Origin: Nitrosococcus wardiae
Lineage (GTDB): Bacteria > Pseudomonadota > Gammaproteobacteria > Nitrosococcales > Nitrosococcaceae
Reading direction: 5' to 3'
DNA length: 64,000 nt
Assembly (NCBI RefSeq): GCF_004421105.1
Contig: NZ_CP038033.1
Location: 3,305,659 to 3,369,658 of the forward strand
The translations under genes were made by a program, and so were the position numbers. Below are positions 45,270 through 63,759 of this stretch, one piece after another. The number at the start of each line of letters is the position of its first letter. Position 1 is the first letter of the stretch. The notes under the pieces are model-generated. The model made no database searches. It saw nothing but the letters and a program-made list of their open reading frames with translations, and had not been told where the DNA came from.

Positions 45270-46139
45270 ATGGCCAAAGTTCGGCAGGCAGCACAAGACA
45301 TGCACCAATCAACGCCTTCCCTATCCCCCCAGGATCTTATAGATCTTCGATGGGCGCACCGACACCTGGAACACCCTTCGTTTGCCGCACGCTTGAGCAA
45401 TGTCGTGGGCACGCCTATTGAGCAGGGGCTCAAACTCTTACCCAAAAGCTGGCACCAACATCTCCATGAGGCAGTGGAGTTTAGTATTCGTCGCGCTTTG
45501 GATATGACAATTAGCTCCATGGGGGGCATTCCTCCCTCCGCTGCTCATGACCACCTGCACAAATTTATGGCAATGGGCAGTGGCGCCATAGGCGGCCTCT
45601 TTGGCCCGCTTACTCTTCTAGCCGAATTGCCCATCACCACAGCCCTCATGCTGCGGTCTATCGCCGATATCGCTCATAGCCAGGGCGAAGACTTAAACAC
45701 CCTGGAAGCAAGGCTTGCCTGCATGGAGGTCTTTGCCCTGGGTGGCCGTACCAAAGAGGACGATGCTGCGGATACGGGCTACTATGGCATTCGCGCGACC
45801 CTCGCCTTCCACTTTTCTGGCTTGCTGGACTACCCCAGTACGGCGACCAAGCTACCTGCCGCCATTAATCTTATCCGAGCTACCGCGGCACGTTTCGGCG
45901 TGGTCATTCCCGATAAGGCGGCTGCCCAGATGATCCCTGCCGCCGGGGCAGTAAGTGGCGCCCTATTGAACTTGATCTTTATGCAGCATTTCCAGGACAT
46001 GGCCCGGGGCCATTTCATCGTCCGTCGGCTGGAGAGAAAATATGATCCTGAGACGGTGCGAGTTGCGTACCAACAATTAACTCAAGAAGAAGCTAAAGTG
46101 CGGCTGCGGGACCTAAAGGCTTCCCCTCCTGGTACCTAG
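45270..46139 (+). CDS. EcsC family protein
   Basis: A 289-residue protein with hydrophobic helices around residues 100-125 and 225-255. It contains the MGSGAIGGLFGPLTLLAELPITTALMLR-type segment seen in EcsC-family proteins (positions ~105-135). The family is named for a gene beside an ABC transporter in Bacillus; its function is unknown and no transporter lies here. It is divergent from tmcA. Confidence 0.8.
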   Translation: MAKVRQAAQDMHQSTPSLSPQDLIDLRWAHRHLEHPSFAARLSNVVGTPIEQGLKLLPKSWHQHLHEAVEFSIRRALDMTISSMGGIPPSAAHDHLHKFMAMGSGAIGGLFGPLTLLAELPITTALMLRSIADIAHSQGEDLNTLEARLACMEVFALGGRTKEDDAADTGYYGIRATLAFHFSGLLDYPSTATKLPAAINLIRATAARFGVVIPDKAAAQMIPAAGAVSGALLNLIFMQHFQDMARGHFIVRRLERKYDPETVRVAYQQLTQEEAKVRLRDLKASPPGT

Positions 46140-52757: not shown

Positions 52758-53145
52758 CGTTATTTACTGAAAATCAAGGGGAGAAAAAAGGCTGAAGGAG
52801 CCAATTGGGCTGGGCATATTCCACATGAGGATTCGCCTCCAATTCAAAGCATCAAAAACGGCAAAAGCCCACCCCTGTAGGCCGGTAAACCAATCGCTTT
52901 CTCGCCTAGAATTCCCATGCCCGTCTCCTTAAATATGCATTCATATTTATTTAAGATTTCCTGGTCTTACGCTGATAGCTCAAATGGTTTTATAGACCTC
53001 CCCCGGCTATTTCTCTACCTGATTTTTTCGAAAGAATCGAACAGGACAAGATTCTCGCCACCACCTCCCACTCGAAAAATCCGGGATGTTGTAAGATTCC
53101 GCAAAAATAACTTTGGATACGGAATAAAACTCGTCAAGAAACTCT
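52758..53145. other. gap upstream of the ATPase pair
   Basis: No supported gene. A 108-codon plus-strand frame here (from 52917) overlaps the next gene out of frame and resembles nothing. The promoters of arcC and of the winged-helix/ATPase pair must lie here. An ATTCCG/CGGAAT inverted repeat around 53096-53123 is a possible operator for the latter. Confidence 0.4.
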
Positions 53146-53775
53146 ATGAATTTTCAACTCAGCCCCCTACAAGCTTTAATTCTGTGGCGATTACTGACCA
53201 GCGAAGGGCAAGCCTACCTGGCCGATATCCGGCCCAAGCCTAAGCGGCGCGACCGAAAAGCCCTGCTAGAGGCTGGATTTATCGAAGAAGAATGGCGCCG
53301 CAAACCCCGCGGTGGCCGGGCGATCTATGTGCAGTTGACCGATAAGGCCTGGGCCTGGGCAGGAGACCATATGGATGCTAAACTCTCCCACCAGTCTCCC
53401 GCTGCCGGCCCTATTTTTCAGGCCTTTCTTACCCGATTACAACCAATCTTGAAGCGCCGTCAAATCACCCTGGCAGAGATCTTCAGTTCAACCCAAGAAC
53501 TTCCCCCTAGGGAAGCTCCAGAGCAGCAGTTACAGGAAGCCTATTTCCATCTCTCTGGCGGTAAAGGAAATGTTCGGGTCCGCCTGGCCCAACTCCGACA
53601 AAATTTAGAGACGATTCCCCGCTCTCAACTGGATGGGTTGCTGCTGAAGCTACAAGAGGAAGGAAAATTGGTGCTGTCACCTCTCGATGACTCCCGGGAA
53701 ATTTCAGCAGCGGACCAGGAGGCAGCCCTTAGCGTGGCTGGATTTAAACGACATATTGTCTACATGCAGAAGTGA
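53146..53775 (+). CDS. winged-helix-like protein partnered with a dual ATPase
   Basis: A 209-residue protein. The N-terminal ~75 residues look like a winged-helix DNA-binding unit (helices LSPLQALILWRLL and RDRKALLEAGFIEE, then a basic wing RRKPRGGRAIYVQLTD). The remainder is helical with a KGNVRVRLAQLR segment that may be a second winged helix. The stop is 4 bases from the next start, so the pair is a unit. I know no named family for it. Confidence 0.7.
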   Translation: MNFQLSPLQALILWRLLTSEGQAYLADIRPKPKRRDRKALLEAGFIEEEWRRKPRGGRAIYVQLTDKAWAWAGDHMDAKLSHQSPAAGPIFQAFLTRLQPILKRRQITLAEIFSSTQELPPREAPEQQLQEAYFHLSGGKGNVRVRLAQLRQNLETIPRSQLDGLLLKLQEEGKLVLSPLDDSREISAADQEAALSVAGFKRHIVYMQK

Positions 53776-53779
53776 ACTA

Positions 53780-56700
53780 ATGGATCAATGTAAGGCACTG
53801 AAGGCGGTTAATTTTGATTGGACCATGCAGTTGAAAAGTGTATGGGATGACTCGACGTTTCACACGCCTGGACTCCATCAAAACTTGCGAACTGAACTGA
53901 TTGAAATTTTGCACAACAGAGCGGGGGGCAATGGTCAGAATCCCCTCGGACAAGTCATTACCGGTCCGGCAGGGGCCGGAAAAACCCATTTCCTCGGTAC
54001 CCTGCGCCAGGAAGTCGCCACCCTCCCGGCCTGGTTCGTGTTGGTGGATATGACCGATGTCAAGGATTTTTGGGAAACAGTATTGCTGGGATATACCAAC
54101 TCCCTGCAGCAGGCGACATCAGGGAATCGCCCCCAATTCCATGACCTCCTGGAACATCTCCTCACCCCTGAGATTAAGGCCCCAAACCTCCGCCGCGCTC
54201 TCCATCGAGCCGGATCTCAACCGGCACCCTCCCCCGGCCTTGTGCAACGACTGCTCGCTTTCCTGCGGGGGAGCAAACCTCAGCACCGAGAAGCGGCAGA
54301 TACCCCCCTAACTCCTCGGCAAATCGCAGAATATGGGGATGAAGACCTGGCCAAAGTGATAAGGCACACCCTCAACCGTCTAAGTAAACGCTATCCCGAG
54401 GAGATCAGAGAGCACCAAGACGCTCTCCGCGCCTTGATGCTCCTTAATTCTAACGATCTGGAGCGGTCCAACGTGGGCTATAGCTGGCTTCAGGGAATGC
54501 CTATCGACCAGACGGACCGGCAACTCTTCGGCTTTTTATGGCCCCAGAGAGAGGCTTCCGAAATCGTAAAATCCTTGTCCTGGCTCATGAGTCTCTATCG
54601 GCCCACCCTGCTCGCCTTTGATCAACTCGATGCCATTGTGGCCCAGCACCATCTTACCGCCGGGGCTGAACCCACCACCCCGATGACAGCGGAACAGGGA
54701 GCTTCCCAAGCCATCATCGAAGGGATTGCGGACGGCTTCATGGCCATCCGGGATAGGGTTTACCGCACCCTTACGGTCCTGGCCTGCCTGGAGGCTAGCT
54801 GGGAAATACTGCGACAGGGGAGCCTGGCTTCGGCCACCGATCGGTTCGACTCCCCCCACACCCTGGCACCCATCAACAATGCCACCCTGGCTGAGGAAAT
54901 CGTCACTCTCCGCTTGGCTGAGGCCTACCGCGCTCAAGGTTTTACCCCTCCCTATGCGAGTTGGCCTTTCCAGCCCCAGGTCTTTGCCTGTGCCGCCACG
55001 CTCCTGCCCCGGGAATTACTAAAGCGTTGCGAGGAACACCGGGTTCAATGCCTGAAAAAGGGAAAAGTCATCGAGTTGACCGATTTCGAATCCCCACCAA
55101 ACTCCTTTGAAAATTCAGACAACCTTTCCACGGAGTCCGGGCTTGATCAGTCCTATGAAGAGTTCTGCCGCCAAGCCCCCCTACAGGAACTGCTGGCCGA
55201 GGAAGCGGAAGACCAAGCCCTGTGCGAGTTGCTACAGACAGTCTGCCGTTGTTTGCTGCGGGAAAATCCTCTACCAGATGACAGGGAGGCCGCGGTAGAC
55301 ACTGAATTTCCAGGAGATAAAAACTACCGTTCCCTTCATGCCCGGGTTCGGCTCATGGATGCTAGCCAGGGGGATCGGGAGCAACATTATTGTTTTCGGG
55401 CCTTACAGAAGACTCATGCCGTCGCCTATCAAAGTCGTCTCAATGCGGCTCTCACTGCTTCCGGGATCGATCCCCAGCTACCTTTCAGAAAACTAGTCAT
55501 ACTCCGCACCACGCCACTGCCCCCGGGCAAGGTTACCCAGGAAATCACCGACAAATTTCTCCAGGCGAAGGGCCAATTCGTTGCGCCTAATGAACAAGAT
55601 CTGCGGGCTATGTGGGCACTCTACCAGCTTGAGCAGCAAAATCTGCCTGACTTTGAGGCCTGGCTTTGCAAACACCGCCCGGCCACCCACCTCCAATGGG
55701 TGCAAGAAACCCAATTACCCCAGGATTTCCCTGAAAAATCGGCCCCCCAAGACACTCCGTTAGACCCAGGGGCAAACACAGAAGTCTGGACAGAATATCT
55801 GCCTTCTCGGCATGAAAGTCCCAAAGCCCCCACGCCCCTCTACCCATCCGCCCTCCCGGTGGGGCGAACCTTATCCAACCCCGCCGAATCAGTAGCCATC
55901 TCCTTGCCAATGCTCACCCAATATACTGGGGTTCTGGCTGGCAGCGGAGCAGGCAAAACCGTGCTTCTCAAACGACTGGTGGAAGAGGCGGCATTGCTGG
56001 GAATCTCCTCCATTGTAATAGACCATACCAATGGGCTCGCCTCTCTCGGGGATAGCTGGCCACAATATCCCGACTCTTGGACTCAGGAAGATAAGGAAAA
56101 AGCTGAGCGCTATCATGCCAAAGCCGAAGTCATCATCTGGACTCCCGGACAAGCCGCCGGCAACCCCCTGAAACTGGAACCACTGCCTGATCTTGCCTCT
56201 CTGGTAGAGCATCCAGAAGCGTTGGATCAAGCCCTTGAGATGGCCCAAGCGACCCTGAAAGACATCGTTGCCCCAGGAGAATCCGCCAGTTCCCATTATA
56301 AAATGGGGGTTCTCACTTCGGCCTTGAAATTTTTTGCTCTCCAGGGAGGTAAAACCCTGCCAGACCTTATCGCTATCCTCTCTAACTTACCGGCGGAAGT
56401 GAGTCAGGGTATCTCCAGCGCCTCTCGTTTCGGTAGCGAGATGGCCCAGCGCCTGCAAGCGGAGATAGAGAGTAATCCTTTATTCCACCAGGAAGGCCCG
56501 GCCCTCGATCCCAGCTTTCTCTTCGGGGACGCTGCCCTGAAACAACCGAGGGTTTCCGTCATCAACCTGGCTGGCTTACCTAGCCTCAGAATCCAGCAGC
56601 AGTTTCTCAATCAGCTGGCCATGACCCTCTTGAGCTGGATAAAACAACATCCAGCGCCCCCCTCTATGCCGGTGCAGGGATTTTTGGTGATGGACGAGGC

Positions 56701-57103
56701 CAAAGAGTTTATCCCTGATGAAAAATCCGTGCCCTGCAAAGAAAATCTGCTGCGAGTGGCAGACCATGCCCCTACCTGCGGCCTTGGATTGATTTTCGCC
56801 ACCCAGGCACCCCAAAATATCTACCAACCAATGATGGCCAACTGCTTCACCCAATTTTTTGGAAAAGCCAGTTCACCGGCTACTATCGAAGCGGTGCAGG
56901 AACAGCTCAAGGCACGCGGCGGAAAGGGTGACGATATTCCCACTCTAGAAGCCGGCCATTTTTATTTCTATACGGAAGGAATGCCGGCACCAGAAAAAAT
57001 CGCCGTCCCCTGGTGCCTTTCCTATCATCCGCCCAATCCTCTAGAGAAGACTGAAATTCTCCAACGGGCGGCGGCTTCCCGTCCCCATGCTAAAGATCCA
57101 TAA
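53780..57103 (+). CDS. large protein with two P-loop ATPase modules, HerA-like C-terminus
   Basis: About 1107 residues. The N-terminal module has Walker A GPAGAGKTHF (~62) and a Walker B-like LLAFDQLDA (~275), in the style of ORC/STAND AAA ATPases. A long central helical region follows (~330-680). The C-terminal module has Walker A AGSGAGKTVLLKRL (~718), Walker B FLVMDEAKEFIP (~968) and LIFATQAPQ (~1010), the HerA/FtsK/VirB4 pattern of DNA-pumping ATPases. No membrane helices are seen. With the winged-helix protein it makes a compact two-gene unit that resembles defence or DNA-conflict ATPases, but no nuclease partner is visible. I chose the ATG at 53780. Confidence 0.8.
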   Translation: MDQCKALKAVNFDWTMQLKSVWDDSTFHTPGLHQNLRTELIEILHNRAGGNGQNPLGQVITGPAGAGKTHFLGTLRQEVATLPAWFVLVDMTDVKDFWETVLLGYTNSLQQATSGNRPQFHDLLEHLLTPEIKAPNLRRALHRAGSQPAPSPGLVQRLLAFLRGSKPQHREAADTPLTPRQIAEYGDEDLAKVIRHTLNRLSKRYPEEIREHQDALRALMLLNSNDLERSNVGYSWLQGMPIDQTDRQLFGFLWPQREASEIVKSLSWLMSLYRPTLLAFDQLDAIVAQHHLTAGAEPTTPMTAEQGASQAIIEGIADGFMAIRDRVYRTLTVLACLEASWEILRQGSLASATDRFDSPHTLAPINNATLAEEIVTLRLAEAYRAQGFTPPYASWPFQPQVFACAATLLPRELLKRCEEHRVQCLKKGKVIELTDFESPPNSFENSDNLSTESGLDQSYEEFCRQAPLQELLAEEAEDQALCELLQTVCRCLLRENPLPDDREAAVDTEFPGDKNYRSLHARVRLMDASQGDREQHYCFRALQKTHAVAYQSRLNAALTASGIDPQLPFRKLVILRTTPLPPGKVTQEITDKFLQAKGQFVAPNEQDLRAMWALYQLEQQNLPDFEAWLCKHRPATHLQWVQETQLPQDFPEKSAPQDTPLDPGANTEVWTEYLPSRHESPKAPTPLYPSALPVGRTLSNPAESVAISLPMLTQYTGVLAGSGAGKTVLLKRLVEEAALLGISSIVIDHTNGLASLGDSWPQYPDSWTQEDKEKAERYHAKAEVIIWTPGQAAGNPLKLEPLPDLASLVEHPEALDQALEMAQATLKDIVAPGESASSHYKMGVLTSALKFFALQGGKTLPDLIAILSNLPAEVSQGISSASRFGSEMAQRLQAEIESNPLFHQEGPALDPSFLFGDAALKQPRVSVINLAGLPSLRIQQQFLNQLAMTLLSWIKQHPAPPSMPVQGFLVMDEAKEFIPDEKSVPCKENLLRVADHAPTCGLGLIFATQAPQNIYQPMMANCFTQFFGKASSPATIEAVQEQLKARGGKGDDIPTLEAGHFYFYTEGMPAPEKIAVPWCLSYHPPNPLEKTEILQRAAASRPHAKDP

Positions 57104-59292: not shown

Positions 59293-60000
59293 ATGTGCGC
59301 GATCGGCACGCAGCAAGGCGGGCTGCTCTCGCCGTTGCTCGCCAATATCCTGTTGGATGACCTCGACCGGGAACTGGAACGGCGCGGTCACCGCTTTGCG
59401 CGCTACGCCGATGACCTGGTGATCCTGGTCAGAAGCCAACGCGCCGGTGAACGGGTCAAGGCCAGCATCACGGCGTACCTGACCGGCACGCTCAAGCTGA
59501 CGGTCAACGAGCGCAAAAGCCGCGTGGTGAAAACCAACGACTGTACCTTCCTCGGATTTACTTTCTACGGGAGCAAGCTGCGTTGGTCGAACCAAGCCTT
59601 CGAGGATTTCCGGCACAACGTCCGAAAATTGACCGGTCGTAGCTGGGGCGTCTTGATGGCCTTTCGGCTTCACAGGCTCGCCCAATACATCAGAGGCTGG
59701 ATGGGTTACTTCGGCATCTCGGACTACTACCGGCCTGTTCCCGAACTTGATCAGTGGATACGCCGGCGTGTGCGCATGTGCTATTGGAAACAGTGGCGCT
59801 ATGCACGAACGAAAGTGCGTCATCTTTTGGCATTGGGAACGAGCAAACGTCATGCGATCTTGACGGCGATCAGTAGCAAAAGTTACTGGCGCCTCTCCAA
59901 AACGCTGGCCACACAAACCGGGATGACCAACCAATGGCTGAAAGACCAAGGGCTGATATCTGTGCGTGATCTGTGGATGAAGGCACATGGCTATGTTTGA
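59293..60000 (+). pseudogene. group II intron reverse transcriptase/maturase, N-terminally truncated
   Basis: About 235 residues remain. They begin just before RT domain 4 (TQQGGLLSPLLANILLDDLD), include the YADD active site (FARYADDLVIL) and run through the thumb and maturase X domain (TFLGFTFYG, RLAQYIRGWMGYFGI). The N-terminal RT domains are lost, so the product is inactive. The usual Pro-Gln-Gly is Gln-Gln-Gly here. No start signal suggests expression. Confidence 0.85.
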
Positions 60001-60026
60001 TTATTCTGGTGTGCTTCCCTTCTCAT

Positions 60027-60097
60027 GAACCGCCCTGTGCGGACCCGCATGCAGGGTGGTGTGGGGACCGGGAGTTAGAAGCTCCCGGTTACCCGAT
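60027..60097 (+). ncRNA. group II intron 3' domains V-VI
   Basis: Domain V-like hairpin at 60027-60060: GAACCGCCCTGTGCGG, four-base loop, CGCATGCAGGGTGGT. Domain VI follows with an ACCGGGAG stem pairing with CTCCCGGT (60067-60090), ending in CCCGAT. This resembles the 3' end of bacterial group II introns. Confidence 0.75.
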
Positions 60098-60117: not shown

Positions 60118-61848
60118 TCACTGAATCGCCAATGAAGCGCAAAAGTTCGTTCTCAACTCCGTCAATCGGTCTTCTGCAATAGCGTTGGACGTCAGCGCCT
60201 TCATAATTTCAATAGGCTTCTTATCGTCTCGTGGAACCGGGAGGCCGAGGAATGCCTCAAGACAGTTCTGAAACTTGACTGGTGGCGCTAGCGAAAAAGC
60301 GTTGGAACTGTTTTCAACTAGGTCGTTCACGGCGCCATAAAACTCAACATGAGGCCCCGCATTGTTGTCGTCGTCGAGCATAACGCCATGGGGAATGCCG
60401 AACACGTCGAGTAAAGCCAAATATCTATGGAAATTGAACTTGCCGAGGACATCTATCACGCAGATTTTGTGCGTGCTCAAGTCATGCCAATCATTGGCAA
60501 GCAAGTAGTTAAACAAAGCACGCTCTGACGCCCCCTCCACCAGGAGGACCTTATCTGCAAAAAACATCGACGACCGCTCGCCATCCAGCCACAACTGGAA
60601 CCGAAAACGCTCTTCTTGGACGGCTATATCGGCTTGTGGTGGATCGGCAATCATGCGCCTCGCCCTAGCTTTCTTGTTGTCCGCGATGGCTGGATCAGCC
60701 TCAAACGCGGTGAGCGCAGCGAGCAACTCCCCACCGCGCTGGAACACCTGATCAACTTGATCCTTGGAGGGCTGGTAGATCTGCGTAGTGCCGTTGCTTC
60801 TGTCAACCCGAGCTATTTGCCCAATGCTTTCACCGGCTTTACCCGCAAAGATCGGAGAATGGGACGTGACGATTACTTGCTGGCCAAGCTCCGAACTCAA
60901 CCTTCGCAAGTGAAACGCCATACATTCCTGCTGGCTAGGATGAAGGAACGCTTCTGGCTCCTCGAAAAGCACCAAATGAAAATCGGGGTTGAACTCCTTT
61001 TCTTTAGGCTTTTTTTCTTCCCTAAACGTTGGAGCAAGTCGGATCAGCTCGTATATCACCGACCGCTGGAATCCATGGCCATACTTATCCAGATCGAATG
61101 CGGCATTACCCAACGTAGTATCCAGGAATGCAAATTTCACCAGAGACTTTGTAATGTCTTCTGGGGCGACGGGGTTTACGGATAAGTCAATCTTGATCTT
61201 CCAGGGCTCGATGGCAGAGTTGAGCGGGCGGGAAACTTCGTTCAAAAAGCCATTCTTCTGATTTGCCTCGATGTTCAATTCCTCGAACGCATCTGTAATC
61301 TTCGCAAATGCCGGGCTCTTAGCAACAACCTTCTTCAGTAGAAAGTTGAGCATGTTGCGCAATGGCGACGGGCCACTCATCTTTGTGTTCTCGGCAGGAG
61401 TACTCAGAGCCGGAACATAAAGAACTTCTCCAACCTTTGCGGAGCTTACGTTCTTTGCGCCATAGAAAAGATTGTCGAGAATCTTTCCGTCAACCACGCC
61501 GTAAATGTTGCTCTGGTTAGCCTTTACTCGGTCTTTTTCATTAGATTTGAAATACCGTCTAACCGTGAGAAATTTTCCGCCGGTAGCTGATTTGTACTCA
61601 TCTGCCAACCCGTCCCACTCATCATCTGTCAGTTCAAACTGCAATTGCACCCAAGACTCTGCGTCTTTGGCTCCAATCTTTGGAAAGTCATGGGACGACC
61701 ATTTCTCATCATAGAAAGCCCTAAGGGCGTTTAGAACTGTACTTTTACCTGCGTTGTTTGCACCAACTAGGAGCATGTAGTCATGGCCCCGAAGCTCCCC
61801 GTCGATGATTGATCGATAGTTGTGTATGCGGGCTTTTGTGAGCTTCAT
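60118..61848 (-). CDS. OLD-family ATPase with TOPRIM domain
   Basis: A 576-residue protein. The ABC-type ATPase head has Walker A GANNAGKST (29-37), a signature-like segment YGHGFQRS (256-263), Walker B LVLFEEPEAFLHP (293-303) and a switch TSHSP (328-332). A C-terminal TOPRIM nuclease domain follows, with LLVEGASE (Glu 438) and the acidic LDDDN (491-495). This is the OLD/COG3593 architecture found in Gabija-, OLD- and some retron-linked defence systems. AGGAGG lies just before the ATG. It is the gene of the second cassette on the minus strand, followed by the intron-interrupted attC-like end, with a folded element upstream. Confidence 0.88.
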   Translation of the reverse strand: MKLTKARIHNYRSIIDGELRGHDYMLLVGANNAGKSTVLNALRAFYDEKWSSHDFPKIGAKDAESWVQLQFELTDDEWDGLADEYKSATGGKFLTVRRYFKSNEKDRVKANQSNIYGVVDGKILDNLFYGAKNVSSAKVGEVLYVPALSTPAENTKMSGPSPLRNMLNFLLKKVVAKSPAFAKITDAFEELNIEANQKNGFLNEVSRPLNSAIEPWKIKIDLSVNPVAPEDITKSLVKFAFLDTTLGNAAFDLDKYGHGFQRSVIYELIRLAPTFREEKKPKEKEFNPDFHLVLFEEPEAFLHPSQQECMAFHLRRLSSELGQQVIVTSHSPIFAGKAGESIGQIARVDRSNGTTQIYQPSKDQVDQVFQRGGELLAALTAFEADPAIADNKKARARRMIADPPQADIAVQEERFRFQLWLDGERSSMFFADKVLLVEGASERALFNYLLANDWHDLSTHKICVIDVLGKFNFHRYLALLDVFGIPHGVMLDDDNNAGPHVEFYGAVNDLVENSSNAFSLAPPVKFQNCLEAFLGLPVPRDDKKPIEIMKALTSNAIAEDRLTELRTNFCASLAIQ

Positions 61849-61877
61849 TCTCCCTCCTATTGTTTTTATTGAGTGCT

Positions 61878-62016
61878 AATCGGGGAGTTGACTGGCGGGT
61901 TCTCCTGCATACATAGAGGCACAGCGTCTGATTATGCGGGAGGTTCTGCCAGTCGAACGGTTGTTCGCGACGCGAAGCGGCGCAGGCAACCGTTTGGCAC
62001 AGTCAACTCCCCGATT
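61878..62016 (-). ncRNA. candidate structured RNA or folded DNA, three-way junction
   Basis: A perfect 17-base inverted repeat (AATCGGGGAGTTGACTG at 61878-61894 with its complement at 62000-62016) encloses two hairpins. Hairpin A pairs 61902-61911 with 61933-61942 (10 pairs). Hairpin B pairs 61947-61951 and 61956-61963 with 61995-61999 and 61987-61994 (13 pairs, with a four-base bulge). The three helices meet at a small junction. It lies 29 bases before the ATPase start. The closing helix recalls retron a1/a2 arms, but no reverse transcriptase follows it directly; an unusual attC is an alternative. Confidence 0.5.
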
Positions 62017-62021
62017 CGCGG

Positions 62022-62121
62022 CGCGAACGCTTGGGCTCACCGGCAACCAAAAGCGGAGTGGCTTGTAGCGAAGCGGAAAGCCGCGTAGCTTTTGGCTGTC
62101 CGGTGTAGCCCATTGTTAGAT
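62022..62121 (-). other. attC recombination site of the RT cassette
   Basis: The left core ATCTAAC (on the minus strand at 62121-62115) fits RYYYAAC exactly and contains the RT gene stop codon. The arms GGGCT, CACCGG and CCAAAAGC are mirrored by GCTTTTGG, CCGGTG and AGCCC, with unpaired bases between, and the site ends in AAGCGTT. The final core GTTCGCG fits GTTRRRY only partly, so the downstream half may be diverged. Size (~100 bases) and imperfect symmetry fit an integron attC. Confidence 0.75.
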
Positions 62122-63759
62122 TTTATATTTGTCATCACTCAACACATCTTCAAGCTCAGGGATTGTTAGGCAACCGTTATTACCAGCCTCTTTTCTCGCT
62201 CCTTCCAGAGCAATTCCTACTACGCTAGACTTCGAATCAATGATTGGACCGCCACTATTTCCTTCGCGAATAAGTGCATTAATTTCGAATTTTCTAACCA
62301 AACTTTGTGTGTAAATTTTCGCAACCTTGGTATCGACCATAAAATAACTGTGTCCAGGTGCATATGCCGGAAAACCCAGAAGCTTAACATCCTGACCCAT
62401 TTCTACATTATTTGCAGACCTCGAAACACTGTGTTTAGGTGGTTCTTTTCCTTCTTCAACCAGCAATGAACATATCGCAATATCTCTATGCGAGCATATC
62501 CTTTCAACCCTCAACTTATATTTTACTGTTGAGTCGTCATGCTTGAATGCCTCAAGGTCTTCAAATATCTTGCCTTTTTCCGATACTACGTGAGCACAAG
62601 TTACAATTCCAATATCTTCTAATTGGAATCCACTCCCTTGTGGAACCATAGCTTCGCCTTCCTCATTGTCATAACAAGCTTCAATTACCCATAATGCATT
62701 TATTGCATTTTTCTCTGGGTCGCTAGGTACTTTAATTTTGAATTTGTGCTCATCCGTTACTAGGTCATTGAATTGAGTAGCCAATTTTATGTATATTGGA
62801 TCTCGTTCCGTTTTGACACTTCTTAGAAAGGCGAGCTTGCCTTTCACAACATGCAAAAATGACTTTGGTTTCCCGGAAGCTCTATATCTTGTATCATATT
62901 TTTCATTAAAATCCTTTTCTGCTAATTCATATCCATGCTTTCTCCACGCATGTAACATTGAAGACAATTGCCTAACATATTTTCGTCTTACATTTGTGAG
63001 TTCATTTACCGTAAGGCCTGTGACTTCCATTCTAGAAAGCCTGCTGCACAAGCGAACTTTGTCATAATTTATAAAAAATCCATTTTCTTCGATAATATGC
63101 GTTAAGGCATGACCAGGGGCTGCTTCGCCACCTCTTAATATAACTATTTCTTCTGGCAGCCTGCCTTTAGTGGTGGTAAATGAAAAGCTAATATCATCTG
63201 CATATCTCGTATACGTCCCATTTGTCATCTTCGCCAAACTTTGCAACTGCGTATCAAGCTTCCACGCGATCATGTTTGAAAGGATTGGTGAGGTTGGCGC
63301 ACCTTGTGGAAGTGAATTATCAAAACAACAGATTTGAGCGAGGATGGTCGCAATACTGTTATTAAAGTTGAAAGGCGATGACTTAAACAGGTTTCTTATT
63401 CTTCCGAAATGTATTGAACCAAAAAAGTTTGACAAATCAATATTGAATATGAATCTTTTATCTAAATGCCGTTCCGCGTTTGTGACGATACTTTTATTCT
63501 TGGCAAATCCATGTGCAGATGGTTTTGATGGATATATTTCGTAAAACAGCTCTTTTAATTCACTTTGAATTTTCTTTAATTTTTTTGAAGGAGAGGCAAT
63601 TTCCCTATGCCCGCCATTCTTTTTAGGTATTTGGAACTGATGGTATTTATATACGCCGTCAGTTTTATATATTATTTTAGTTAATTTGGCATAAGACATG
63701 CCAAACATACTGGCCAGCTCATTATGTGTAGTTATTTTTAGAAAATCTTCTTTATTCAT
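62116..63759 (-). CDS. retron-type reverse transcriptase fused to trypsin-like protease
   Basis: 547 residues. RT domain (1-~330): catalytic Asp in FNIDLSNFF (~108), NAERH (94-98, the retron NAxxH signature), PQGAPTSP (151-158), YADD (186-189), VTG (247-249, the retron region Y signature). A C-terminal serine protease (~350-545) has an intact triad: His 390 in TCAHVVS, Asp 426 in HRDIAI, Ser 502 in EGNSGGPI. The RT should make satellite msDNA from the RNA encoded just upstream (63768-63913); the protease is the likely effector. It is AT-richer than the chromosome and its stop lies within an attC core, so it is a gene cassette. Known retron classes, from memory, include RT-trypsin fusions. Confidence 0.9.
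   Translation of the reverse strand: MNKEDFLKITTHNELASMFGMSYAKLTKIIYKTDGVYKYHQFQIPKKNGGHREIASPSKKLKKIQSELKELFYEIYPSKPSAHGFAKNKSIVTNAERHLDKRFIFNIDLSNFFGSIHFGRIRNLFKSSPFNFNNSIATILAQICCFDNSLPQGAPTSPILSNMIAWKLDTQLQSLAKMTNGTYTRYADDISFSFTTTKGRLPEEIVILRGGEAAPGHALTHIIEENGFFINYDKVRLCSRLSRMEVTGLTVNELTNVRRKYVRQLSSMLHAWRKHGYELAEKDFNEKYDTRYRASGKPKSFLHVVKGKLAFLRSVKTERDPIYIKLATQFNDLVTDEHKFKIKVPSDPEKNAINALWVIEACYDNEEGEAMVPQGSGFQLEDIGIVTCAHVVSEKGKIFEDLEAFKHDDSTVKYKLRVERICSHRDIAICSLLVEEGKEPPKHSVSRSANNVEMGQDVKLLGFPAYAPGHSYFMVDTKVAKIYTQSLVRKFEINALIREGNSGGPIIDSKSSVVGIALEGARKEAGNNGCLTIPELEDVLSDDKYKI

What the first reader, a model, noticed from the sequence alone, without database searches (positions are those of the whole stretch)
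53146..57103. Unnamed two-gene system: winged-helix-like protein plus dual ATPase with HerA-like module
A tightly coupled pair (4-base spacing) codes a small DNA-binding-like protein and an 1107-residue protein that couples an ORC/STAND-like ATPase to a HerA/FtsK-like pump. The arrangement resembles DNA-conflict systems in which one module senses and the other translocates DNA, but there is no nuclease and no match to a system I can name. It lies next to a cassette array, in accessory DNA.
Basis: partly seen in the sequence, partly recalled or inferred. Interest (0 to 1): 0.65.

Follow-up and report, generated by a model that had tools for sequence, protein, structure and literature searches.

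The report
ORC-HerA DNA pump missing its nuclease
Two adjacent genes encode a DNA-binding protein and a large two-motor ATPase that probably grips and pumps DNA; relatives in other phyla carry a third gene, a predicted DNA-cutting enzyme, which this lineage has most likely lost while keeping the pump working.

Summary
In detail: two real genes, 4 bases apart, encode a 209-residue double winged-helix protein and an 1107-residue protein joining an ORC/Cdc6-type AAA+ ATPase to a HerA/FtsK motor. "No nuclease" is true only of this locus: 43 of 81 scored loci carry a DUF559 (REase-fold) nuclease gene upstream. The window copy nests among nuclease-bearing ones; in mycobacteria the gene is missing beside the same neighbour. 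Both ATPase sites are conserved in 84 of 84 proteins, with or without nuclease; the ORC-like Walker B reads D-Q-x-D in all 84, a natural Glu-to-Gln. All four genomes of the genus have the pair beside aconitase, under strong purifying selection, so it is not recent accessory DNA, and relatives' flanks show no defence-island signal. It resembles the predicted "HerA/FtsK capture" counter-invader systems (PMC10853773), but an active nuclease is absent here and the inactive-REase domain is unproven. I call it a nuclease-less variant of that kind; function untested.

The parts
53146..53775 (+). 209-aa DNA-binding-like partner with two winged-helix domains (about residues 6-76 and 125-207)
   Evidence: ORF; AF2 pLDDT 92.2; domain 1 matches MarR family, Z about 10 over about 73 residues; second domain read from AF2 secondary structure only
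53776..53779 (+). 4-base spacer between the two genes; many relatives instead overlap by 1 or 4 bases
53780..57103 (+). 1107-aa protein: ORC/Cdc6-type AAA+ ATPase + REase-like middle domain + HerA/FtsK motor
53780..55099 (+). ORC/Cdc6-type AAA+ module (residues 1-440)
   Evidence: AF2 pLDDT 85.7 for residues 1-690; 1w5t_C Z 15.9; Foldseek 1fnn_A E 4.9e-4
53963..53986 (+). Walker A of the ORC-like module (GPAGAGKT, residues 62-69)
   Evidence: G62, G65, G67, K68, T69 invariant in 84 of 84 proteins
54611..54631 (+). Walker B of the ORC-like module (residues 278-284, LAFDQLD): D281-Q282-x-D284, natural Glu-to-Gln
   Evidence: D281, Q282, D284 invariant in 84 of 84
55199..55582 (+). middle domain (residues 474-601), alpha-beta-beta-beta-alpha-beta order like a REase core but without a recognisable PD..ExK motif; invariant or near-invariant R522, H536, R540, R553, R570, R576
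   Evidence: AF2 secondary structure; conservation; no Pfam or PDB sequence match worth trusting
55715..55849 (+). fast-evolving, low-confidence linker (residues 646-690)
   Evidence: 29% identity to two genus genomes against about 71-72% for HerA; pLDDT under 50 at 653-680
55850..57103 (+). HerA/FtsK motor (residues 691-1107)
   Evidence: Pfam DUF87; PDB profile hits to HerA chains
55937..55960 (+). Walker A of the HerA motor (AGSGAGKT, residues 720-727)
   Evidence: K726 and T727 in 84 of 84
56681..56698 (+). Walker B of the HerA motor (residues 968-973, ending D972-E973)
   Evidence: D972 and E973 in 84 of 84
52758..53145 (+). site where relatives carry the DUF559 nuclease gene; no such gene and no detectable remnant here
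   Evidence: profile built from the relatives' nucleases found nothing upstream in the window or in three genus genomes

Best explanation
This is the core of a DNA-capture machine: a double winged-helix protein helps seat the ORC/Cdc6-like half on DNA, that half acts as an ATP-held clamp or sensor (its Walker B glutamate is naturally Gln), and the HerA half pumps the DNA. In the complete, ancestral form the pumped DNA is delivered to a separate DUF559 nuclease encoded just upstream, so the whole would act against incoming DNA. The window carries a derived, nuclease-less form kept under selection, which must act by clamping or pumping alone or by borrowing a nuclease from elsewhere. Shown here: domains, operon, distribution and loss pattern of the nuclease gene, intact motor motifs, selection. 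Inferred: ring assembly, DNA as substrate, clamp behaviour, and that the target is foreign DNA.
For: Winged-helix gene upstream in 79 of 80 kept relatives (the other is cut by a contig end), in 3 of 3 plasmid-collection relatives and in the window. DUF559 nuclease gene upstream in 43 of 81 scored loci, with invariant D271, E282 and D284 of the REase core in 31 of 31 aligned and a PDB profile match to endonuclease-like 3hrl (1.1e-13). ORC/Cdc6 fold and HerA motor. Window grouped with two nuclease-bearing Desulfobacterota proteins (SH-aLRT 98); the label needs at least 10 changes on the tree. Same upstream neighbour gene at a 1115-bp gap (nuclease, 1 locus) or 115-263-bp gaps (none, 9 loci) in mycobacteria, and a remnant in L062. 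Motifs intact in 84 of 84. dN/dS 0.07-0.18 in the genus. Patchy distribution: 1 of 397 other genomes sampled from the phylum has a long relative. The domain set resembles a published prediction of counter-invader 'HerA/FtsK capture' systems (PMC10853773 section 22).
Against: No defence-island signal around 29 diverse or 12 mycobacterial loci. None in viral contigs or phages. The pair is vertically kept at one place in the window's genus, unusual for an arms-race system. No nuclease here. The inactive-REase reading of the middle domain rests on secondary structure only. Long branches and odd composition make the window's exact tree place uncertain (warnings).
Confidence: 0.5

Rival explanations
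1. Domesticated genome-maintenance machine: the pair no longer fights invaders but helps organise, segregate or repair the host chromosome, using an ATP-held clamp and a DNA pump.
For: Fixed position and purifying selection in the window's genus; shared flanking genes in mycobacterial two-gene loci (38 of 231 pairs share 3 or more) but hardly in the nuclease-bearing Methylobacterium-group loci (0 of 78); housekeeping flanks.
Against: Very patchy: in 368 other sampled genomes of the class only 9 HerA-half matches, and none in the two genomes of other genera of the family, which an essential maintenance function would not predict. Methylobacterium flanks may differ only because those genomes are plastic.
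Confidence: 0.25
2. The two-gene form still restricts invaders, using a nuclease encoded elsewhere in the cell.
For: DUF559 matches exist elsewhere in 5 of 6 genomes of the family.
Against: Those genes differ in size and place and match the operon's nuclease model only over its DUF559 part; the genus has no shared strong one, G372 having only a weak match.
Confidence: 0.15
3. A decaying relic of a three-gene defence operon.
For: Nuclease gene missing; a remnant is seen in one mycobacterial relative.
Against: Both frames open in 4 of 4 genomes and dN/dS 0.07-0.18; ATPase lysines and Walker B acids intact in 41 of 41 nuclease-less proteins.
Confidence: 0.04

Closest known systems
HerA/FtsK capture systems with Orc/CDC6 ATPase (predicted; PMC10853773, section 22)
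   Same: Orc/CDC6-type ATPase, HerA/FtsK motor, winged-helix protein; in relatives a REase-fold nuclease; a REase-like domain seems to follow the AAA+ module
   Different: Nuclease absent here; middle domain not proven to be the inactive REase; HerA clade not determined; DUF559, MTES and Vsr do not occur in that paper's main text; not mobile in this genus
SIR2-HerA and DUF4297-HerA two-gene anti-phage complexes (search listing and starts of abstracts only; details recalled)
   Same: A HerA motor paired with a nuclease or other effector
   Different: There HerA is a stand-alone protein; here it is fused behind an ORC-like ATPase and paired with a winged-helix protein and, in relatives, DUF559
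BREX BrxC/PglY ATPase
   Same: ORC/Cdc6-clade ATPase; BrxC structures match at Z 12.5-12.8
   Different: No BREX partner seen among the neighbours scanned; the BrxC domains listed in PMC12839542 passages include no HerA half
MADS component MAD8 (PADLOC)
   Same: PADLOC model mad8 matches the HerA half at 1.2e-19
   Different: The model is unspecific: another ATPase gene nearby scores 2.5e-20 with it; no other MADS match for the pair

Membership tests
HerA/FtsK capture system (Orc/CDC6 class) | Orc/CDC6-family AAA+ ATPase | tested here: met
   1w5t_C Z 15.9, 3.6 A over 269 residues; Foldseek 1fnn_A 4.9e-4
HerA/FtsK capture system (Orc/CDC6 class) | HerA/FtsK ATPase | tested here: met
   Pfam DUF87 over its cut-off; PDB profile hits; Walker A and DE intact
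HerA/FtsK capture system (Orc/CDC6 class) | inactive REase inserted between AAA+ core and C-terminal wHTH | tested here: inconclusive
   alpha-beta-beta-beta-alpha-beta order at 474-601; no sequence match; not folded alone; following wHTH not resolved
HerA/FtsK capture system (Orc/CDC6 class) | active REase in the neighbourhood | tested here: not met
   none upstream in the window or in three genus genomes; met in 43 of 81 loci scored
HerA/FtsK capture system (Orc/CDC6 class) | winged-helix component | tested here: met
HerA/FtsK capture system (Orc/CDC6 class) | mobile gene neighbourhood | tested here: not met
   fixed place in the window's genus; flanks differ in Methylobacterium relatives
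HerA/FtsK capture system (Orc/CDC6 class) | HerA domain in clade 2, 4 or 5 of that paper's tree | not tested
   reference set not available here
MADS | mad1-mad8 operon | tested here: inconclusive
   of the pair and three neighbours scanned, the pair matched only mad8, and that model is unspecific; other neighbours not scanned
BREX | PglZ and BrxC partner genes | tested here: inconclusive
   no BREX match shown for the pair; the rows shown for three neighbours hold none; whole window not scanned
DndFGH / SspBCD | DndF/G/H or Ssp components | tested here: inconclusive
   only 1 of 4 family members weakly matched DndH (0.024) and 1 SspF (0.054)

The most novel reading that the evidence does not exclude
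A DNA-capture immune machine that repeatedly shed its nuclease and became a stand-alone, vertically kept clamp-and-pump. In this reading the ORC-like half is a naturally ATP-locked clamp (fixed Glu-to-Gln in Walker B in every member looked at), and DNA is controlled by gripping and pumping, not cutting.
Probability: 0.25. Interest if true: 0.7.

Novelty: new variant of a known kind. Interest (0 to 1): 0.5.

Why it matters
That allows a direct test of whether such DNA pumps defend cells only by cutting, or can also work by gripping and moving DNA. It also gives a case of a conflict-type machine that may have been domesticated, with intermediate stages preserved.

Tried and rejected
MADS link: dropped, because PADLOC mad8 also matches another ATPase gene nearby as strongly. 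Defence-island support: not found; limits are that 130 of 278 picked ORFs of set A were scanned (29 of 32 loci), that picking ORFs in high-GC DNA is rough, and that only 25 of 62 and 25 of 68 matching families were displayed. Phage or viral origin: no match. Nuclease remnant upstream of the window pair: none. Nuclease in trans: no conserved candidate. Middle domain as a relative of DUF559: no profile similarity; no Pfam or PDB match worth trusting. A DndG-like multiple wHTH protein was not listed among structural matches of the small protein, which shows nothing either way. Literature: searches found no paper holding all their terms (HerA, DUF559, winged helix, defense; DUF559, DUF87); some searches gave listings only; two papers (PMC10853773, PMC12839542) were read in passages and, for the first, one whole section. 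Rows dropped: L020 (truncated) from all counts except that of 80; L015 and L046 (contig edge) from the nuclease count; L002-L010 (HerA half only) from the family.

Full report
What is there. The finding's coordinates are exact. A 209-residue gene (53146-53775, +) is followed after 4 bases by an 1107-residue gene (53780-57103, +). The genome has one copy.

Domains. AlphaFold2 on residues 1-690 with 43 relatives (pLDDT 85.7) gives an AAA+ module whose best solved matches are ORC/Cdc6 proteins (1w5t_C Z 15.9 over 269 residues; BrxC of BREX at Z 12.5-12.8). Residues 474-601 then run alpha-beta-beta-beta-alpha-beta, the order of a REase core, but lack a recognisable PD..ExK motif and have no trustworthy sequence match in Pfam or the PDB; the REase reading is an inference. 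A fast-evolving linker follows (29% identity to two genus genomes), then a HerA/FtsK motor (Pfam DUF87 2.8e-7; PDB profile 2.2e-10). The small protein has two winged-helix domains by AF2 (pLDDT 92.2); only the first was covered by structure comparison (MarR-like, Z about 10).

Relatives. None was found in phages or viral contigs. The winged-helix gene lies upstream in 79 of 80, the exception being cut by a contig end, in 3 of 3 plasmid-collection loci and in the window; most pairs overlap by 1 or 4 bases.

The missing third gene. In 40 of the 80 loci and 3 of 3 plasmid-collection loci a DUF559 protein of about 350 residues lies upstream of the winged-helix gene, mostly within 15 bases (farthest: 541 bases in L019). 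Pfam scores are above cut-off for the three tested, the acidic core residues are invariant in 31 of 31 aligned, and the profile matches an endonuclease-like structure. With L015 and L046 (contig edge) and L020 (truncated) set aside, 43 of 81 loci have it and 38 do not, the window among the latter. On a tree of 83 proteins the label needs at least 10 changes; the window groups with two nuclease-bearing Desulfobacterota proteins (SH-aLRT 98; the program warns about long branches and composition). In mycobacteria one upstream neighbour lies 1115 bp from the winged-helix gene where the nuclease is present (L089) and 115-263 bp where it is absent (9 loci); L062, sister to L077, holds a remnant. The simplest reading is repeated loss. 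In the window and three genus genomes no remnant is detectable.

Kept working. All four genomes of the genus, own included, carry the pair (71-92% identity); two genomes of other genera in the family do not. Aconitase is the shared neighbour in all four; carbamate kinase, NRDE-like and ArfB-like genes (names recalled) are shared with one genome only, and the OLD nuclease and RT-protease genes with none in the stretches read. dN/dS is 0.13-0.18 for the large gene and 0.07-0.14 for the small one, against 0.06-0.09 for aconitase and 0.14 for tmcA. Lysines, threonines and Walker B acids of both ATPase sites are the same in 84 of 84 proteins (43 with, 41 without nuclease). The ORC-like Walker B is D-Q-x-D in all 84, i.e. 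Gln where AAA+ proteins usually have the catalytic Glu; that a Glu-to-Gln change commonly traps ATP is established knowledge, and whether D284 substitutes is unknown.

Mobility. Among 13 nuclease-bearing Methylobacterium-group loci 0 of 78 pairs share three or more flanking genes; among 22 nuclease-less mycobacterial loci 38 of 231 do. Together with the fixed place in the window's genus this suggests that the nuclease-less form has settled down; genome plasticity of Methylobacterium is an untested confounder. In the class sample only the own genome had a full-length match (10 of 369 with any match, 9 of them HerA half only); in the phylum sample 1 of 397 others had a long match.

Defence islands. 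PADLOC on 130 flanking ORFs of 29 diverse loci gave one matching ORF for each of the families shown (two for mad3), and Pfam shows metabolic and housekeeping genes; 104 flanking ORFs of 12 mycobacterial loci gave a similar picture.

Comparison and verdict. PMC10853773 (section 22 read in full, other passages by search) predicts a class of counter-invader 'HerA/FtsK capture' systems made of an Orc/CDC6 ATPase, an inactive REase, an active REase, HerA/FtsK and a wHTH. The window meets three of these, fails one (active REase) and leaves one open (inactive REase), and is not mobile in its genus. I therefore do not file it as a member, but as something that works like one: a nuclease-less variant. 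The foreign-DNA target remains untested; a domesticated maintenance role is the main rival.

Noticed in passing
window 62116-63759 (-): Reverse transcriptase fused to a trypsin-like protease, PADLOC RT-Protease_XI 1.8e-179; absent from the stretches read in three other genus genomes.
   Followed up: partly
window 60118-61848 (-): OLD-family nuclease (PADLOC Old 9.5e-55), also absent from the stretches read in three other genus genomes.
   Followed up: partly
window 59293-60097 (+): C-terminal part of a group II intron maturase (recalled from its sequence) followed by an Rfam group II intron match at 60028-60097.
   Followed up: no
window 61854-62025: About 170-bp stretch with a 20-nt inverted repeat (61875-61894 / 62000-62019), 93% like L099 1632-1806 in another genus genome: small repeat element between the OLD and RT genes.
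   Followed up: no
L061 ORF of 731 aa ending 64 bp, and L065 ORF of 611 aa ending 11 bp, before the winged-helix gene: Two nuclease-less actinobacterial loci have a large repeat-like ORF just upstream where others have DUF559: possible replacement partner.
   Followed up: no
L102 15485-17161 (-): ATPase gene that scores with PADLOC mad3 (1.4e-53) and mad8 (2.5e-20): a sign that these models are unspecific.
   Followed up: partly
window 45270-46139 (+): Weak PADLOC PDC-S29 match (1.5e-6).
   Followed up: no
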